This document shows positions 1 through 34,173 of a stretch of DNA of 51,469 nucleotides, piece after piece. How positions within the stretch are numbered: the stretch's first letter is position 1; every line of letters starts with the position of its first letter. Both the position numbers and the translations under genes were made by a program. Under the pieces are notes generated by a model, which was given only the letters and a program-made list of their open reading frames with translations, was not told where the DNA came from and made no database searches. This DNA is from Rhodospirillales bacterium 69-11 (GTDB taxonomy: Bacteria > Pseudomonadota > Alphaproteobacteria > Acetobacterales > Acetobacteraceae), in contig MKTV01000029.1 in NCBI GenBank assembly GCA_001898425.1, positions 52,163-103,631 of the forward strand, written 5' to 3'.

Positions 1-170
1 GCCATGACGATGGAGGGGCGGCCACGACGGGGGCGGCCACGACGGGGGCGGCCACGACGGGGGCGGCCATGACGGGGGCGGCCACGACGGGGGGCGGCCA
101 TGACGCGGGCGGCCATGACGGGGGCGGCACGACGGGGGCGACCTAGACGTGGGCGGCCATGACGGGGGCG
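1..170. repeat. 15-bp tandem repeat array at left edge
   Basis: About ten degenerate copies of a 15-base unit (GACGGGGGCGGCCAC, often with CATGAC in place of CACGAC) run from the window edge to about 170, just downstream of the aapP stop codon. The CATGAC/GGCC core resembles the palindromic repeats found elsewhere in the window. I see no gene in 1-233. The array continues beyond the left edge or begins there. Confidence 0.8.
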
Positions 171-233
171 GCCGGACCTCCGCTCCGTTCGCCGCCTCGC
201 GTCCGCCCGGCTTCGCCCGTCTGCCCCCCGGCC

Positions 234-7467: not shown

Positions 7468-8700
7468 TCACGCGACCCCGCAGTCCAGCACCAGCCGCGT
7501 CAGCCCGCGCACCAGGATGCTCTCCTGCCGCTCCACCGCGACGACGCGCAGCTCCGGGAAGCGACGGCCGAGGGCGGCGAACACCAGCTCCGCCTCGAGC
7601 TGGGCGAGGCTGCTGCCGGCGCAGGTATGGATGCCCGCGCCGAAGGCGAGGTGCCGCGTCTCCTCGCGCCCCAGATCCAGCCGGTCCGCCTCCGCGAACA
7701 CGCGCGGATCGCGGTTGGCGGAGCCGAGGCCGAACCCGACCACCTGGCCCGTGCGGATCGTGACGCCCTGGAACGCCAGATCCGCCAGTGCGTGGCGGAA
7801 GGCGATCTGCTGCGGGCTGTCGTAGCGCAGCAGCTCCGTCACCGCCGACTTCACCCCGACGGCGCCCTCGCGCAGCCGCTGCCATTCCCCGGGATTGGCG
7901 GCGAGCGCACGCAGCCCGTTGCCGATCAGCAGCGACGACGCCTCGTGCCCGGCGAACAGGAACAGCACGCAGGAGGCGAGCAGCTCCTGGTCGTCGAGGA
8001 AGCTGCCCTGGTCCTGCGCCGCGATCAGCAGGCTCAGCAGGTTGCCCTGGGGCGCACGCCGGTGCGCCGCCACCAGCCGCTCGAAATACGCGATCAGTTC
8101 GGCCGCGCGCCGGCTGCCCGCGGCGATCCGTTCGGGGGTGCGCACCAGGTCGAGCGAGAGCGTGATCTCGCGCACCCAGCCGCGCACGAGCGGATGATCC
8201 TCCTCCGGCACGCCCATCAGGTCGGCCACGATGTCGATCGAGAGCGGCGAGGAGAAGTCGGAGACGATGTCGAACGGGCCGTCGTCGGGGATGCGGGCGA
8301 GGGCGGCGGCGATCAGCGCCTCGATCCGCGGCCGCATGCCGAGGACGGGGCGCAGCGCGAACACGGGCGCGGCGATGCGGCGCAGGCGCGCGTGGTCCGG
8401 CGGGTCCTTGAACAGCATCCAGGCCGCCAGCATCGCGTAGAGCGGCTTCTGCTGCTCCGGGATGGGCGGGAAGGCTTCGGGCGGCAGCACCTTGGTGATC
8501 TCGCGGCCGAACCGGTTGTCCTTGAGCCCGGCGGCGACGTCGGCATAGCGGCTGACGAACCAGAACCCGGCATAGCCCTCGGCCGGCGTCGCGGCCCAGC
8601 CGACCGGGTGATCGTCGCGCAGCCGCGCATAGGTCGGGTACGGATCCTCGAGAAAGGCCGGCTCGAGCGGGCGGAACACGGTCTGGCGCGCACCGGACAT
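7468..8700 (-). CDS. Cytochrome P450, last gene of the biosynthetic operon
   Basis: This 410-residue soluble class-I bacterial P450 probably hydroxylates or oxidises the product or a tethered intermediate. The haem-binding motif FGAGIHTCAG has its ligand at Cys360, and the ExxR motif reads ELLR. The I-helix reads FAGHEAS, so the usual Thr of the AGxxT proton-relay motif is Ala followed by Ser. Such a change is known in some macrolide P450s, where substrate groups assist oxygen activation. The ATG at 8700 is five bases after the P450-ACP stop, so it is in the same transcript. A longer open frame overlaps the upstream gene and is a shadow. A ferredoxin partner is not encoded nearby. Confidence 0.92.
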   Translation of the reverse strand: MSGARQTVFRPLEPAFLEDPYPTYARLRDDHPVGWAATPAEGYAGFWFVSRYADVAAGLKDNRFGREITKVLPPEAFPPIPEQQKPLYAMLAAWMLFKDPPDHARLRRIAAPVFALRPVLGMRPRIEALIAAALARIPDDGPFDIVSDFSSPLSIDIVADLMGVPEEDHPLVRGWVREITLSLDLVRTPERIAAGSRRAAELIAYFERLVAAHRRAPQGNLLSLLIAAQDQGSFLDDQELLASCVLFLFAGHEASSLLIGNGLRALAANPGEWQRLREGAVGVKSAVTELLRYDSPQQIAFRHALADLAFQGVTIRTGQVVGFGLGSANRDPRVFAEADRLDLGREETRHLAFGAGIHTCAGSSLAQLEAELVFAALGRRFPELRVVAVERQESILVRGLTRLVLDCGVA

Positions 8701-8705
8701 GGCGG

Positions 8706-10159
8706 TCAGCCCGCGTCCCTGGTGGTGGCGACCAGGGCGGCGAGCTCGCCCACGTCCTTGGCGGTATAGGCGGCGCGCCGCGGCAGCTTGACCGCGAACC
8801 GCTTCTCCAGCGCATCGAGGATCATCAGATGCGCGAGGCTGTCCCATTCCGGCGTGTTCTTCGCGCAGGTGTCCGCGGCGATCTCGGCGCGGTCGATTCC
8901 CAGGCTCTCGGCGACGATCGCGCAGACGGGGTCGAACAGGTCGGGGGTCGGGTCTGGGGTCGGAGGCATGAGCGATGGACCGGCCTTGGTGCGAAGGAGC
9001 GGGAGAATGTTCCAGCCGAGGTTGCCGGCGGCGTAGCCGGCGATCGGGATCGGGCGCTGCGCCGGGTCGAAGCGCAGGCCCTCCGACCGCGCCAGCAGCA
9101 CCTCGAAGGCGATGCGCGCCTCGAGCCGCGCGAGCGGGGCGCCGGGGCAGGTGTGCACGCCGGTGCCGAACCCCAGATGACCGCGTGCGTCGCGCGCAAG
9201 GTCCAGCGTGTCGGGATCGGCCCAGCGTTCCGTGTCGCGATTGGCGGAGCCGGGGAACAGCATCAGCAGCGCGTTGGCGGGCAGGTCCACGCCGGCCAGC
9301 GTCACGGGCCGGGTCGCGCGGCGCGCGATGCGCTGCAGCGGCGGACGCAGCCGCGCGAGTTCCTCGACGAAGCGGGGGATCAGCGCGGGGTCGGCCTTGA
9401 GCCGCGCCCAGAGCGACGGCGTCTCGGCCAGGACGTAGGCGCCGCTCGCGATCATGTTCGCGGTGGTCTCGTGCCCGCCGATCAGCAGCAGCGCGCAGAG
9501 ATTGCGCAGCTCCTCCCGGCTCAGCGTGCCGCGCGCCTCCTCGGCGACGAGCGTGCTGATGATGTTGTCGGTGGGCGCGGCGAGGTGGCGCTCGATCGCG
9601 GCGTCGAGGATCGCCATGAGCTGGGTGAGCCCGACCTGCGCCTCGGCCAGCAGGTCGGGGCTGCCCATGCCGGTCGCGGCGAAGCTCGCCAGCAGCGCGT
9701 CGCGCGCGTGCCGGTTCATCGCGTCGCGCTGGTCGAGCGGCACGCCCAGCATCTCGCAGATGATCGTGACCGAGAGCGGGTTGGCGTAGACCTGCACGAA
9801 ATCCATCCGCTCCGGCGCCGCCTCCAGCAGCGCCTCGGCCACCTCCCGGATGCGCGGCTCCAGATGCGCCACCGCGCGCGGGGTGAAGGCGCGGGTGACG
9901 GTCTGGCGCAGCCGCGTGTGGTCGCGCGCGTCCTTCATCACCATCGACATCAGCGGCACGTGCATGCCGAGATCGGACGCGTAGGTCGCCGGATCGCGCA
10001 GCACCGCCTCCACCTCGGCATGGCGGGAGATGACCCACATCGGCACGCCCGCCAGGCGATGGACCGGGTCGTGCGCCCGCAGCCAGGCATAGGCTGGGTA
10101 GGGGTTCGCCTGGATCGCGACGTTGGCGAGGTCGAACCCGGCGGAGGGATAGGCGCCGC

Positions 10160-10163
<4 letters not shown>
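8706..10163 (-). CDS. Cytochrome P450 fused to a C-terminal acyl carrier protein
   Basis: This 485-residue protein has two parts. Residues 1 to about 400 are a complete P450: I-helix IGGHETTANM, and haem motif FGTGVHTCPG with ligand Cys339. After a Pro-rich linker (PPTPDPTPD), residues about 410-485 form a carrier protein with phosphopantetheine site EWDSLAHLM, Ser442. This carrier resembles the free ACP of the same operon (WDSLQHI, then a helix ending FGVKL; here FAVKL). The P450 therefore probably acts on a substrate bound in cis. Its ATG overlaps the megasynthase stop (ATGA), which fixes the start at 10163 rather than 11 codons upstream. No stop or frameshift separates the two domains. Confidence 0.92.
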
Positions 10164-21970
<11,807 letters not shown>

Positions 21971-21983
21971 GGATCCTCCGGTT

Positions 21984-23456
21984 TCAGGCGCAGGCGTCGC
22001 GCAGGCGGGCGACGATTTCGGGGAGCGGGATGTCGTGGGTGCCCTCGGGCGTGCCGGCGATCAACTGCAGGCAGGGGCCGCGATAGGACAGGATCAGGAT
22101 GCCGCCGCCGCCGCGCGCGGCGCTCAGGACGAGCTGCATCGTGGTGTCGGGATCGGCCTCGGCGCGCGTGCCCACCGTGGGCGCGCCCGTGATGGTCATC
22201 GTGGCGGGCTGGTAGTCCGGCGTGCCGCCCATCAGCAGCCGCGGCAGGGCGAGCAGCGCGTCGCCGGCGGCGCCCGCGCGGATCTGCTCGAACAGCGCGG
22301 CGCGGTTGTCGCGGGCGGCGTCCCAGAACGGACCCTCGGCCAGCGGCGTGAAGACGTGCGCGACGGCGAGGCCGGGGCCGGCGGGCGGGGCCGGCCGGAT
22401 GAAGCGCTCCATGTCCACCGCATGCGCGACGGTCGCCACCTGCATCGTGTCGCGCAGCGCGATGGCGAGCGCGCCGTTCAGCGACACGCCTTCTTCCTCG
22501 CAGCGGTCCGCGAGGCGCCGCGTCTCGGCTTCGGTCAGCACGTGCCGCGCGAAGCGGGTGGGCGTCGCGCGGGGCAGGATCGCGGTGAGCCGCTCATGCC
22601 CCAGCGCCTGCCAGCGCGCGCCGGCGCGGGCGGACCACCATGCGTCGAGCAGGGTGTCGGCCTCGGCGTCGCCATACTGGGCGGGGGGCAGGAGTTCCTC
22701 GCAGGGCGGCGCAATCGGGCCGGGGTGTTCGCCGGCGAGGAAGGCATGGGCGACGTGCAGGCTGGTGCGCCAGTCGGTCAGCGCGTGGTTCACCGCGAGG
22801 ATCAGCGTCGTGCCGGCGGGATGGTGCTGCAGGACGGCGTGCCAGGGCGGGTGACCCTCGGTGCCGACGCGGGTGCCGAGCAGGGCGGCCGCGGTGGGGA
22901 GCCAGTCGTCGGGGGAGGCGGTGGTCTCGTGCCGGAGGACGCCGGGCGTGTCGGAGGACGCCCAGCGCGGGCGGCCCTGCGCGTCGCGGCGGATGGTGGG
23001 GAGGGTGAAGCGGGTAGGGGCGTCCGTGTCTTGGGCCGGCCCGCGTCCGCCCGTGTCATGGCCGGGCTTGTCCCTCCCCGTGTCATGGCCGGACTTGTCC
23101 CTCCCCGTGTCATAGCCGGACTTGTCCGTCCCCGTGTCATGGCCGGGCTTGTCCCGGCCATCCATGGCTTCGCTCCCCGCGGCACCGACAGTCGTGGATG
23201 GCCGGCCTTCGCCGGCCATGACACGGGGGGCCAGGCCTTCGCCGGCCATGACACGGGGGGCCAGGCCTTCGCCGGCCATGACACGGGGGCGTGGGTCTTC
23301 ACCGGCCATGACACGGGGGGCCGGGCCTTCGCCGGGCATGACACGGGGGGGTGGGCCGTCCCCGCGGCGTCGTTCCACCACGACGATGCTGTTCATCGGG
23401 GCGACCGCGTCGAGCAGCCAGAACTTCGCCTCGTTCGGGCTCAGCAACCGCTGCAT
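21984..23456 (-). CDS. Condensation-superfamily acyltransferase carrying a repeat-encoded insertion
   Basis: This 490-residue protein most resembles PapA5/alcohol-acyltransferase members of the condensation superfamily, which move acyl groups from carriers to hydroxyl or amino groups. The catalytic HxxxD is visible as NHALTDW (His224, Asp228), with weaker similarity at the N-terminus (RLLSPNEAKFWLLD) and C-terminus. Residues about 33-140 are encoded by GTCATGGCCGG-type repeats (PRVMAGEGLAP and DGRDKPGHDTG motifs). They split the conserved N-terminal strands between VVVERRR and FTLPTIRRDAQGRPRW. Removing them would place the His near residue 118, as in normal family members. The start at 23456 is three bases after the ACP stop. 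Its role could be O-acylation, release or transfer between carriers; the sequence does not decide. Confidence 0.8.
   Translation of the reverse strand: MQRLLSPNEAKFWLLDAVAPMNSIVVVERRRGDGPPPRVMPGEGPAPRVMAGEDPRPRVMAGEGLAPRVMAGEGLAPRVMAGEGRPSTTVGAAGSEAMDGRDKPGHDTGTDKSGYDTGRDKSGHDTGRDKPGHDTGGRGPAQDTDAPTRFTLPTIRRDAQGRPRWASSDTPGVLRHETTASPDDWLPTAAALLGTRVGTEGHPPWHAVLQHHPAGTTLILAVNHALTDWRTSLHVAHAFLAGEHPGPIAPPCEELLPPAQYGDAEADTLLDAWWSARAGARWQALGHERLTAILPRATPTRFARHVLTEAETRRLADRCEEEGVSLNGALAIALRDTMQVATVAHAVDMERFIRPAPPAGPGLAVAHVFTPLAEGPFWDAARDNRAALFEQIRAGAAGDALLALPRLLMGGTPDYQPATMTITGAPTVGTRAEADPDTTMQLVLSAARGGGGILILSYRGPCLQLIAGTPEGTHDIPLPEIVARLRDACA
23040..23370. repeat. Two opposed tandem palindromic-repeat arrays in the acyltransferase gene
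   Basis: Four direct units with GTCATG or GTCATA cores start near 23055, 23082, 23109 and 23136, 27 bases apart. A central GTCGTGGATGGCCGG palindrome half follows. Then five oppositely oriented CATGAC units lie at about 23218, 23248, 23278, 23308 and 23338, exactly 30 bases apart. All periods are multiples of three, so the reading frame is kept. Confidence 0.92.
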
Positions 23457-23459
23457 CGC

Positions 23460-23711
23460 TCAGGCCCGCGCGGTCTTCTCGAGCAGCAGGTCGACCATCT
23501 TGCCGACATTCTCGAGCTTGCCGACTTCGGCCGGGTTCAGCTTCACGCCGAACGCGCGCTCGACCGCCAGCACCAACACGATGTGCTGCAGCGAGTCCCA
23601 GTCGTCCAGGTCGGCCGCGGTCATCGCATCGTGGATGCGCAGGTCCGGGTCGTCGAACGTGTCCTGGAACACGGTCTCGAGGCGGCTCACGATGTCGGCG
23701 CGGTCAGGCAT
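23460..23711 (-). CDS. Free acyl carrier protein, FkbH partner type
   Basis: This 83-residue carrier protein has the phosphopantetheine site DDWDSLQHI at Ser40 and the short acidic helix pattern of FkbJ-like ACPs. Its ATG lies inside the end of the FkbH-like gene (8-base overlap), so the two are made together. This is the classic arrangement for loading a glyceryl or lactyl unit onto an ACP. The acyltransferase gene follows three bases later. It probably carries the starter, or an ACP-linked extender, to the KS. Confidence 0.93.
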   Translation of the reverse strand: MPDRADIVSRLETVFQDTFDDPDLRIHDAMTAADLDDWDSLQHIVLVLAVERAFGVKLNPAEVGKLENVGKMVDLLLEKTARA

Positions 23712-25575
23712 GCGGCGTGTCCGATGAAGGGGCGAGCTGGACCCAGGTGGTCCAGCCGGTGTCGCGCGTGGCGAGGTCGAGCACCCAGTCGGTCTCGCTC
23801 GTCCGGGTGAAGCCGATCCGCGGATACAGGTCGGCGACGAGCCCGTTCTTCGCCGATCGCACGTAGCGTCCGACGATCCGCGTGCAACCCTGGGCGCGGG
23901 CGACGTCGCGCATCAGGCCGGCGGTGAATTCCTCAACCGACCGGCCCAGCACCCGGCAGCTCATCACCCAGGTGTCCACCAGAAGGTCGCCGCCGTCGCG
24001 CCGCAGCACGAGGCAGGCGATCAGCCCGTTGTCGCCGAACCGGTCGGCGAGGCGGATGTGGCGCAGCGTCACGTCGTCCCGCGCCGCGAGCGCCGCCAAC
24101 TCCGCCTCGCCGTGGCGGGTGCCGGTCAGGTGGAACTGGTTGCTCTTGCCGATCAGCTGCGCCATGCGCGGCAGGTGGAACGGATCGGCGCCGCCCACGG
24201 TCGCCACCATCTCCAGGCTGCGCAGATAGGCGTCCATGTCGACGAAGCGGGCGCGCACCGCCTCGCGCGCCGCGTTGTCGGCGTAGTAGCGGCTGCGCTC
24301 CGCATCCTCGGCCGAGAACGCGGCCGGCTCGAACCAGCCGGGGGCGGCGAGGGCGGCGACGTAGCCGGACGGGTCCTCGGGCAGGTCCACCACCGCGACC
24401 TCCGGCAGATGGCGGCGGACGATGTCGCGCTCCATCGGGTTGTCGTCCACGAACACCAGCGCATCGAGGCCGATGTTCAGCCGCCGCGCAATGTCGCGCA
24501 GATTGTCCGCCTTGTTGTCCCAGTTGGCCACGAAGGCGGCGAAGTCCTCGACGCGCAGCACGCTGTCCGGATGGTCGCGGAACACCGCGGCGGCCGTCTC
24601 CGCGTCGTTCTTGCTGCAGGCGGCGAGGATCACCCCGCGCTCCTTCAAGGCGCGGACATGGGTCTGGAACGCGACGAACGCCTCCCCGTCGGCGCCGGAT
24701 CCGAGCCGGATGCCGGTGAGGCCGTCGTCGCCGATGACGCCGCCCCAGAGGGTGTTGTCGAGGTCGAGCACGAGGCATTTCTTGGCCAGTCCCCGCGCGC
24801 CCGCCAGCAGCCGCGAAGCGGCATGCGCCACGAGGCCGGAGGCGTCGAGCGCGAAGGCGTGGCGGGAGTGGAACCACCAGCGCGCATCGTCCCATCGCCG
24901 GCGCCCGTAGACGGCGGCCACGTGATCGAGGTCGAACAGCACGACGCCCGTGGGCGCGGCCTCGGCCAGCGCGGCGTCGTAGCGGCGGAGCATGGCGCGT
25001 CGGCCCCAGGGCGCGGCGCCGGCGAGATTGCCGAACGGGTCCTCGGCCGGCAGTTCGACGAGCGTGTCGAGCACGAGGCATCCCGCCGCCTCGGCCAGCC
25101 GGTGCCACAGCATGCGGCGCTCCGCGACGGCGGCTTCGATCGCCGCGTCCCGTTCGGCCATGCCGGCGCCGGGTGCAACCGCGAGCGGCACGTCGCGTGC
25201 GGTCGCGAACAGCCAGACCACGTCGGGGCGGTCGCGATACAGGGCGGATCCGGGTTGAAGGACCGAGGCCGCGACCGTGTCGAACGGCGCCACGCTCACC
25301 GCCGCGTCGAAGCCGGCCTGGGCGAGGAACAGCCGCAGCACCGGCGCGAAATGCTCGAGCGTGTGGGAGGCGAGCAGCGCGACGCGCAGCTTGCGCAGGC
25401 CGCAGGCGCCGAGGTCGATGCGGTCGAGCGCCTTGGCGAGCCGAACGAGGTCGACGTAGTCGGCTTCCGGCGCGGCGGCGGCGAGGAGCAGCGCCAGGGC
25501 GTGCCGGTGATCGCCGGCCAGGGCCGCCACACGCGCCTCGGCGAGCGCGGATTTCAGGGGGGTGGTGGCGGGCAT
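23704..25575 (-). CDS. FkbH-like HAD protein, glyceryl-ACP loading
   Basis: This 623-residue protein belongs to the FkbH family. In known members the HAD domain takes 1,3-bisphosphoglycerate, removes phosphate and passes the glyceryl unit to an ACP. The HAD motif DLDNTLWGGVIGDDG starts at Asp271, and FVDDNPMERD is also present. The N-terminal region (LRKLRVALLASHTLEHFAPV) matches the family's SGNH-like part. A GNAT-like C-terminus (about 470-600, FGDNGLIACLVL) completes the usual architecture. No O-methyltransferase or acyl-dehydrogenase partners (FkbG, FkbI, FkbK) are nearby, so methoxymalonyl supply by the classical route is unlikely. The start at 25575 gives a normal N-terminus, and the longer open frame crosses the promoter region. 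It is the first gene of the operon. Confidence 0.9.
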   Translation of the reverse strand: MPATTPLKSALAEARVAALAGDHRHALALLLAAAAPEADYVDLVRLAKALDRIDLGACGLRKLRVALLASHTLEHFAPVLRLFLAQAGFDAAVSVAPFDTVAASVLQPGSALYRDRPDVVWLFATARDVPLAVAPGAGMAERDAAIEAAVAERRMLWHRLAEAAGCLVLDTLVELPAEDPFGNLAGAAPWGRRAMLRRYDAALAEAAPTGVVLFDLDHVAAVYGRRRWDDARWWFHSRHAFALDASGLVAHAASRLLAGARGLAKKCLVLDLDNTLWGGVIGDDGLTGIRLGSGADGEAFVAFQTHVRALKERGVILAACSKNDAETAAAVFRDHPDSVLRVEDFAAFVANWDNKADNLRDIARRLNIGLDALVFVDDNPMERDIVRRHLPEVAVVDLPEDPSGYVAALAAPGWFEPAAFSAEDAERSRYYADNAAREAVRARFVDMDAYLRSLEMVATVGGADPFHLPRMAQLIGKSNQFHLTGTRHGEAELAALAARDDVTLRHIRLADRFGDNGLIACLVLRRDGGDLLVDTWVMSCRVLGRSVEEFTAGLMRDVARAQGCTRIVGRYVRSAKNGLVADLYPRIGFTRTSETDWVLDLATRDTGWTTWVQLAPSSDTPHA

Positions 25576-34095: not shown

Positions 34096-34173
34096 TGGTC
34101 GGGGCGGCCGGATTCGAACCGGCGGCCTCGTGTACCCAAAACACGCGCGCTAACCAGGCTGCGCCACGCCCCG
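34096..34173 (-). tRNA. tRNA-Pro (anticodon TGG)
   Basis: The minus strand folds as a complete 78-base tRNA. The acceptor stem is CGGGGCG/CGCCCCG, the D stem GCGC/GCGC, and the anticodon stem CGTGT/ACACG with loop TTTGGGT. The T arm is GCCGG-TTCGAAT-CCGGC, and the gene ends with discriminator A and an encoded CCA. The anticodon TGG reads CCA and other proline codons. Confidence 0.95.

What the first reader, a model, noticed from the sequence alone, without database searches (positions are those of the whole stretch)
7468..25575. Apparently undescribed FkbH/AT-less-PKS/Cy-NRPS operon with carrier-fused P450
Six genes on one strand, with overlaps or gaps of at most 13 bases, encode FkbH, ACP, acyltransferase, KS-DH-cMT-KR-ACPx3-Cy-A-MT-PCP-TE, P450-ACP and P450. 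I know of yersiniabactin-like KS-AT-MT-KR-ACP-Cy-MT-PCP-TE lines and of FkbH/ACP starters, but not this combination. The inferred product is a small chain from a three-carbon hydroxylated starter and one C-methylated ketide unit, ending in a methylated thiazoline carboxylate with oxidative and acyl tailoring. A metal-binding role is possible but not shown.
Basis: partly seen in the sequence, partly recalled or inferred. Interest (0 to 1): 0.9.

Follow-up and report, generated by a model that had tools for sequence, protein, structure and literature searches.

The report
End section of dispersed polyketide-peptide line
These six genes are real and seem undescribed, but comparison with relatives suggests they are only the end, and perhaps the starter supply, of a larger natural-product assembly line whose other genes lie elsewhere in the genome, so the product is probably bigger than first guessed.

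Summary
The operon (window 25575-7468, minus strand) is confirmed: FkbH, ACP, HxxxD acyltransferase, KS-DH-cMT-KR-ACPx3-Cy-A-MT-PCP-TE, P450-ACP, P450. Substitutions against relative L027 indicate purifying selection (dN/dS 0.08-0.35).

The reading as a self-contained route to a small molecule is not supported. The genome has two further AT-poor PKS/NRPS contigs, C76 and C118. Among 33 genomes of the genus, orthologs of the first C76 module occur in exactly the four that carry the operon, and of a C118 Cy-A-oxidase-PCP gene in three of those four. In two relatives another PKS gene lies 2.4 and 5.7 kb from the operon. A Rhodanobacteraceae MAG keeps the FkbH-ACP-AT order and a related synthase.

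Best reading: starter supply, terminal module with release, and tailoring of a line with about ten KS, ending in an alpha-methylthiazoline. Starter, module order and product are inferred.

The KR has His for the catalytic Tyr. Palindromic repeats are inserted in frame at one acyltransferase and three synthase sites. Ten paper searches found no match. New variant of a known kind.

The parts
23704..25575 (-). FkbH-family protein, 623 aa; predicted glyceryl loading on an ACP
   Evidence: TIGR01686 294 bits; orthologs 86% L027, 67% G597, 70% G596, 52% G609
23460..23711 (-). discrete ACP, 83 aa, WDSL motif
   Evidence: PF00550; 94% L027, 75% G597, 85% G596, 60% G609
21984..23456 (-). standalone HxxxD acyltransferase, 490 aa, with an in-frame repeat tract
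   Evidence: NHALTDW invariant in 4 sequences; PapA_C E 0.0034
10160..21970 (-). megasynthase KS-DH-cMT-KR-ACPx3-Cy-A-MT-PCP-TE, 3936 aa
20606..21871 (-). KS domain (DTACSS, HGTGT, NIGH), no AT after it
19283..20041 (-). DH domain
   Evidence: PF21089 and PF14765
18071..19183 (-). first C-methyltransferase domain
   Evidence: CurJ 5thy, E 1.7e-79
17072..17569 (-). KR domain with His in place of the catalytic Tyr
   Evidence: PF08659; alignments to solved KRs
15857..16735 (-). three tandem ACPs
   Evidence: GLDS at aa 1774, 1903, 1997
14336..15658 (-). heterocyclization (Cy) domain, DLIALDAAS
   Evidence: PF00668, motif
11351..14281 (-). A domain, Cys-like pocket residues, with an inserted methyltransferase
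11516..12433 (-). second methyltransferase, C-MT type, inside the A domain
   Evidence: CurJ 5thy, E 1.1e-30
11081..11293 (-). PCP
10295..11035 (-). TE, GHSFGG
   Evidence: PF00975, motif
8706..10163 (-). cytochrome P450 with a C-terminal carrier domain (8724-8939, EWDSL)
7468..8700 (-). second cytochrome P450
   Evidence: PF00067; start
23007..23369 (.). palindromic repeat tract, in frame in the acyltransferase
20396..20608 (.). palindromic repeat tract, in frame after the KS
12827..13168 (.). palindromic repeat tract, in frame in the A domain
12035..12157 (.). palindromic repeat tract, in frame before the second MT core

Best explanation
The operon is one locus of a larger, dispersed, AT-poor PKS-NRPS assembly line. 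FkbH charges the neighbouring ACP with glyceryl (inferred from the family), and this unit may prime the first KS of the C76 synthase, in front of which no loading domain was found (inferred; about 0.45 on its own). C76 and C118 carry nine further KS, several C-methyltransferases and one Cy-A-oxidase-PCP module, probably thiazole-forming (domains shown, order inferred). The operon synthase adds the last ketide unit, condenses and cyclizes a cysteine, methylates the ring carbon to a 4-methylthiazoline and releases the chain by its TE (domains shown, chemistry inferred). The P450-ACP would oxidize a carrier-bound intermediate, the second P450 the chain or product, and the HxxxD acyltransferase would move an acyl group between carrier and hydroxyl or carrier (inferred).
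For: Operon P450-ACP in 4 of 33 genus genomes (71-88% in the three others; next best ortholog-length match 41%). First C76 module KS-AT at 77-88% over more than 930 aa in the same 4 of 33 and in none of the other 29 (best 56%, KS stretch only). C118c Cy-A-oxidase-PCP at 70-79% in G597 and G596 as well as the own genome, in none of the other 29 (at most 51%). The loci rank alike: C76 module 88/80/77% and FkbH 86/70/67% in G586/G596/G597. G597 and G596 have a convergent PKS gene, cut by the contig start, 2.4 and 5.7 kb from the operon (domains DH-MT-KR-ACP scanned in G597), and the KS fragment at the C118 edge is 81-82% identical to KS fragments at edges of G597:C74 and G596:C139. Own genome has only two PF00698 ATs, C76 module 1 and a 321-aa FabD-like frame. 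FkbH, ACP and AT keep their order in the G609 MAG genome, which also has a related synthase. dN/dS 0.08-0.35.
Against: In the window genome the operon is not next to C76 or C118; ispDF lies on one side, a regulator and ABC genes on the other. The extra PKS gene of G597/G596 has no match above 43% in the window genome. The G586 assembly shows no C118c ortholog. The four genomes are related, so the co-occurrence is not four independent events. KS motifs used did not match C118d and C118f, and the C118c Cy motif has Ala for the final Ser. No discrete trans-AT was found. The fate of the glyceryl unit is untested.
Confidence: 0.72

Rival explanations
1. The six genes are self-contained: glyceryl-ACP starter, one extension by the synthase, a cysteine, methylation, release, oxidation and acylation.
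For: Complete set of a starter enzyme, a KS module, a Cy module with TE and tailoring genes; in the window genome unrelated genes lie on both sides.
Against: The C76 locus tracks the operon in 4 of 33 genomes; a PKS gene lies near it in G597 and G596.
Confidence: 0.12
2. The operon belongs to the larger line, but FkbH, ACP and acyltransferase decorate the product, for example by putting a glyceryl or acyl ester on a hydroxyl, instead of supplying the starter.
For: The three genes stay together, in a MAG (G609) where they are on a different contig from the synthase; the acyltransferase has an HxxxD motif and a weak PapA_C match; PapA enzymes form esters (recalled).
Against: No other starter source was recognised for the first C76 KS among the genes examined; the fold of the acyltransferase is not established.
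Confidence: 0.35
3. The cluster is decaying: repeat insertions and the KR substitution have made it non-functional in this genome.
For: Repeat tracts in four places, KR Tyr to His, an out-of-frame insertion in the P450-ACP of G596, and the extra PKS gene of G597/G596 not found here.
Against: All six frames are open here; dN/dS 0.08-0.35; the KR substitution is shared by L027, L028 and L029.
Confidence: 0.1

Closest known systems
Yersiniabactin synthetase HMWP1, terminal part
   Same: PKS with C-methylation followed by Cy-MT-PCP-TE giving a 4-methylthiazoline end
   Different: Here no AT, an own A domain with an inserted MT, three ACPs, and FkbH, ACP, acyltransferase and P450 genes in the operon
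Glycerate-utilisation genes of tetronate pathways (tetromadurin, PMC7489565, passages seen)
   Same: FkbH-like protein and a discrete ACP predicted to make glyceryl-ACP
   Different: No FabH-like ring-forming enzyme in the operon; release by a TE; acyltransferase of another type than Agg4 as far as recalled
FK520-type methoxymalonyl-ACP genes (PMC7489565, passages seen)
   Same: FkbH and ACP
   Different: No dehydrogenases and no O-methyltransferase in the operon
Thiamyxin cluster (PMC10100342, passages seen)
   Same: Methylthiazolines, thiazoles, a P450 and a TE in a PKS-NRPS hybrid
Hybrid cluster of Roseomonas algicola (PMC8776678, passages seen)
   Same: Acetobacteraceae; two NRPS modules among seven PKS modules
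   Different: Sequence not compared; whether it is the same pathway is unknown
Rickettsia palindromic elements (recalled; listing only), as a likeness for the repeats
   Same: Palindromic repeats read through in frame in protein genes
   Different: Here in megasynthase and acyltransferase genes; sequences were not compared

Membership tests
trans-AT PKS | PKS modules without an in-line AT | tested here: met
   No PF00698 in the synthase; in the genome only C76 module 1 and a FabD-like frame match
trans-AT PKS | discrete malonyl-AT encoded with the cluster | tested here: not met
   One search found none besides the two named; the draft breaks inside PKS genes, so the absence is not final
trans-AT PKS | KS in trans-AT phylogenetic clades | not tested
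   no reference KS set was at hand
yersiniabactin-type thiazoline metallophore | terminal Cy, C-methyltransferase, PCP and TE | tested here: met
yersiniabactin-type thiazoline metallophore | aryl starter and siderophore uptake genes with the cluster | tested here: inconclusive
   none among the ORFs scanned, but not every ORF was scanned
tetronate glycerate-utilisation genes | FkbH-like protein and discrete ACP | tested here: met
tetronate glycerate-utilisation genes | FabH-like ring-forming enzyme | tested here: not met
   none among the six operon genes; rest of the genome not searched for it
FkbH methoxymalonyl-ACP genes | two dehydrogenases and an O-methyltransferase with FkbH and ACP | tested here: not met
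   none among the six operon genes
condensation/PapA acyltransferase superfamily (standalone acyltransferase) | HxxxD motif | tested here: met
   invariant in 4 aligned sequences
condensation/PapA acyltransferase superfamily (standalone acyltransferase) | profile or fold match | tested here: inconclusive
   PapA_C E 0.0034, below cut-off, 3 of 4 members at E up to 10; hhalign to Cy domains probability 4.4%, E 0.0092; model pLDDT 35

The most novel reading that the evidence does not exclude
A new kind of hybrid assembly line: a glyceryl starter made by FkbH feeds AT-less modules scattered over the genome, the chain ends in an alpha-methylthiazoline, a P450 works on a substrate held by its own fused carrier domain, and palindromic elements repeatedly and preferentially lengthen linkers of the megasynthases in frame.
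Probability: 0.3. Interest if true: 0.7.

Novelty: new variant of a known kind. Interest (0 to 1): 0.5.

Why it matters
It points to an undescribed, probably large polyketide-peptide in a PKS-rich genus of Acetobacteraceae (family from the record title of L029, whose contig belongs to a genome of the same genus), and shows how an operon-level reading can underestimate a dispersed pathway. The carrier-fused P450 offers a direct test of on-carrier oxidation. The in-frame repeats are natural experiments on which megasynthase linkers tolerate insertions.

Tried and rejected
AlphaFold of the acyltransferase on a 4-sequence alignment gave mean pLDDT 35; no fold search was run on it. A PDB sequence search with it at E up to 1 found nothing. 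hhalign with Cy domains was weak.

The family search with the acyltransferase (200 genomes) matched 3 including the own; the other two, G052 and G099, match only in the repeat tract, which led to the palindromic element. That sample did not list G586, G596 or G597 as matches; the genus search did. Plasmid tblastn: 1591 records, all under 60% identity; widest match 36.8% over 92%, up to 44% over 54-55%. Of 7 loci, L027, L028 and L029 are relatives; L030-L033 share common domains at most. L027 and L029 come from contigs of the same length as G586:C103 and G596:C82 with the same matches, so they are counted once.

Patellazole was considered from memory; the listing shows no paper holding both 'patellazole' and 'FkbH'. 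Oocydin A: its FkbH domain is described as part of a module thought non-functional (PMC4552970, passages). A claim that the KR is dead was softened because C118a, C118d and C118e also have His there; my motif matched 6 KRs in 13 proteins, one with Tyr.

Paper searches: seen as listings with abstract starts. Passages were seen in PMC8776678, PMC4552970, PMC10100342 and PMC7489565.
Full report
OBSERVATION. FkbH passes its curated cut-off (294 bits against 146.65). The ACP, both P450s and the P450's carrier domain match Pfam. The 3936-aa synthase shows KS, DH, MT, KR, four carrier stretches, Cy, A, a second MT and TE, and no AT. Cys, His and His of the [11 protein letters not shown] of the Cy and GHSFGG of the TE are present. 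A-domain pocket residues ([29 protein letters not shown]) resemble the Cys code, which I recall and did not compute. Both MTs are closest among solved structures to the C-methyltransferase of CurJ (E 1.7e-79 and 1.1e-30), so the second probably methylates carbon, as in yersiniabactin (recalled).

CORRECTIONS. The KR has His where the three solved KRs shown have Tyr; L027, L028 and L029 share this, G597 too, and so do C118a, C118d and C118e among the six KRs that my motif matched; C76_1 has Tyr. The KR may be inactive or a working variant. The standalone acyltransferase has an HxxxD motif and a weak PapA_C match; it is no malonyl-AT. The last P450 probably starts at 8700.

SELECTION. Between window and L027, dN/dS (Nei-Gojobori) is 0.22 FkbH, 0.18 ACP, 0.35 acyltransferase, 0.24 synthase, 0.22 P450-ACP and 0.08 P450. 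The carrier serine of the P450-ACP is kept in G597, G586 and G596.

RELATIVES. The genome-contig scan gave L027 (complete operon; FkbH 86%, ACP 94%, acyltransferase 75%, P450 96%), L029 (from inside the synthase onward) and L028, a Rhodanobacteraceae MAG contig whose synthase is about 43-52% identical in its pieces. The genus search found the P450-ACP in 4 of 33 genomes: own, G586, G596, G597; G586 and G596 hold the L027 and L029 contigs. G597 has the six genes at 63-81%; G596 has FkbH, ACP, acyltransferase and the synthase start on contig C112. In L028 the P450 is unfused and lies upstream of the synthase, after a PKS end and a methyltransferase. Its genome, G609, carries FkbH, ACP and acyltransferase (cut by the contig end) in the same order on another contig (52, 60 and 48%).

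A LARGER SYSTEM. In the own genome KS domains lie on C118 (5), C76 (4) and in the operon (1), apart from fatty-acid-type ones. PF00698 ATs are two: C76 module 1 and a FabD-like frame. C118c is Cy-A-oxidase-PCP; its Cy motif reads DLLIADAAA. Upstream of C76_1 lie a thioesterase, an ABC1 kinase and a phosphopantetheinyl transferase gene. The first C76 module has orthologs of 77-88% in exactly the three other operon carriers and in none of the other 29 genomes (best 56%, KS stretch only). Ignoring relatedness, such a 4-of-4 against 0-of-29 split has odds of 1 in 40,920 (my arithmetic). C118c has orthologs of 70-79% in G597 and G596, not in the G586 assembly, and in none of the other 29 (at most 51%). 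In G597 and G596 a PKS gene cut by the contig start runs toward the operon and ends 2.4 and 5.7 kb from it (domains from G597). The KS fragment at the edge of C118 is 81-82% identical to KS fragments at the edges of G597:C74 and G596:C139. The simplest reading is that such a KS fragment and that PKS gene are halves of one module broken in assembly. Against it: the window genome shows no such second half above 43%, and here the operon is flanked by ispDF and by a regulator and ABC genes.

MECHANISM. Shown: domains, motifs, neighbourhoods, co-occurrence. Inferred: FkbH loads glyceryl on the ACP, as proposed for FkbH-like proteins in PMC7489565. The first C76 KS has a normal Cys and no Pfam domain before it at E up to 1e-6, so its starter must come from elsewhere; this ACP is the one discrete carrier I found among the genes examined. 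The terminal module builds an alpha-methylthiazoline and releases the chain. Two KS, C118d and C118f, did not match my Cys motif, so not every KS need elongate. Glyceryl as a decoration and not a starter is a serious rival (0.35).

IN-FRAME REPEATS. The acyltransferase and three synthase sites contain a palindromic repeat (core GTCATGGCCGG, 3 to 12 bases, CCGGCCATCCACGAC) read through in frame. The acyltransferase tract is absent in G597 and G596; all three synthase tracts are absent in L028, and the second and third in L029, whose contig does not cover the first. L027 shares the sites with other lengths. Exact cores: 82 in the own genome, 65 in G586, 58 in G597, 87 in G600, 38 in G603, none in G596; 11 of 33 genomes have any; the reversed-pattern control gives none. 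Of the 82, 13 lie in the operon (6), C118 (6) and the PKS part of C76 (1), against 0.84 expected by length (Poisson 7.6e-12). Cores often come in pairs within one element, so there are fewer events and the probability is optimistic. The A domains of the synthase and of C118c carry tracts at the same place in the sequence. In the P450-ACP, L027 has an in-frame repeat and G596 a different, frame-breaking insertion at the same place.

NOVELTY. Ten paper searches listed no description of this cluster, nor of such a P450-carrier fusion; the library lacks most subscription journals. PMC8776678 mentions a Roseomonas algicola hybrid cluster with two NRPS modules among PKS modules, which may be related; I could not compare it.

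VERDICT. Interest 0.5.

Noticed in passing
window 23007-23369, 20396-20608, 12827-13168, 12035-12157: Palindromic repeat tracts inserted in frame; 82 exact cores in the genome, 13 of them in PKS loci.
   Followed up: partly
L050 about 11570-11645 (G596:C82), P450-ACP gene: A different repeat interrupts the P450-ACP frame at the place where L027 has an in-frame repeat; real or assembly error unknown.
   Followed up: partly
L081 1047-19554 (C76) and L070/L080 (C118): Two further PKS/NRPS loci of the same genome, with contig ends inside PKS genes.
   Followed up: partly
L047 3066-4685 and 4704-6101 (G597:C86): Radical SAM and MBOAT genes beyond FkbH in G597; the same side was not scanned in G596.
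   Followed up: no
L050 3584-4150 and L046 4112-5832: Nitroreductase-like gene (G596, below cut-off) and CMAS-like methyltransferase and phosphoesterase genes (G597) between the extra PKS gene and the operon.
   Followed up: no
window 15-173: Tandem 15-base GC-rich array at the window edge.
   Followed up: no
window 34096-34173: tRNA-Pro (TGG), minus strand.
   Followed up: no
G000:C52:84532-86151: A second, distant FkbH-family gene in the own genome, 44% identical.
   Followed up: no
other genomes of the genus (G582, G585, G602, G603, G605): Long arrays of KS matches, not orthologous to C76 module 1.
   Followed up: no
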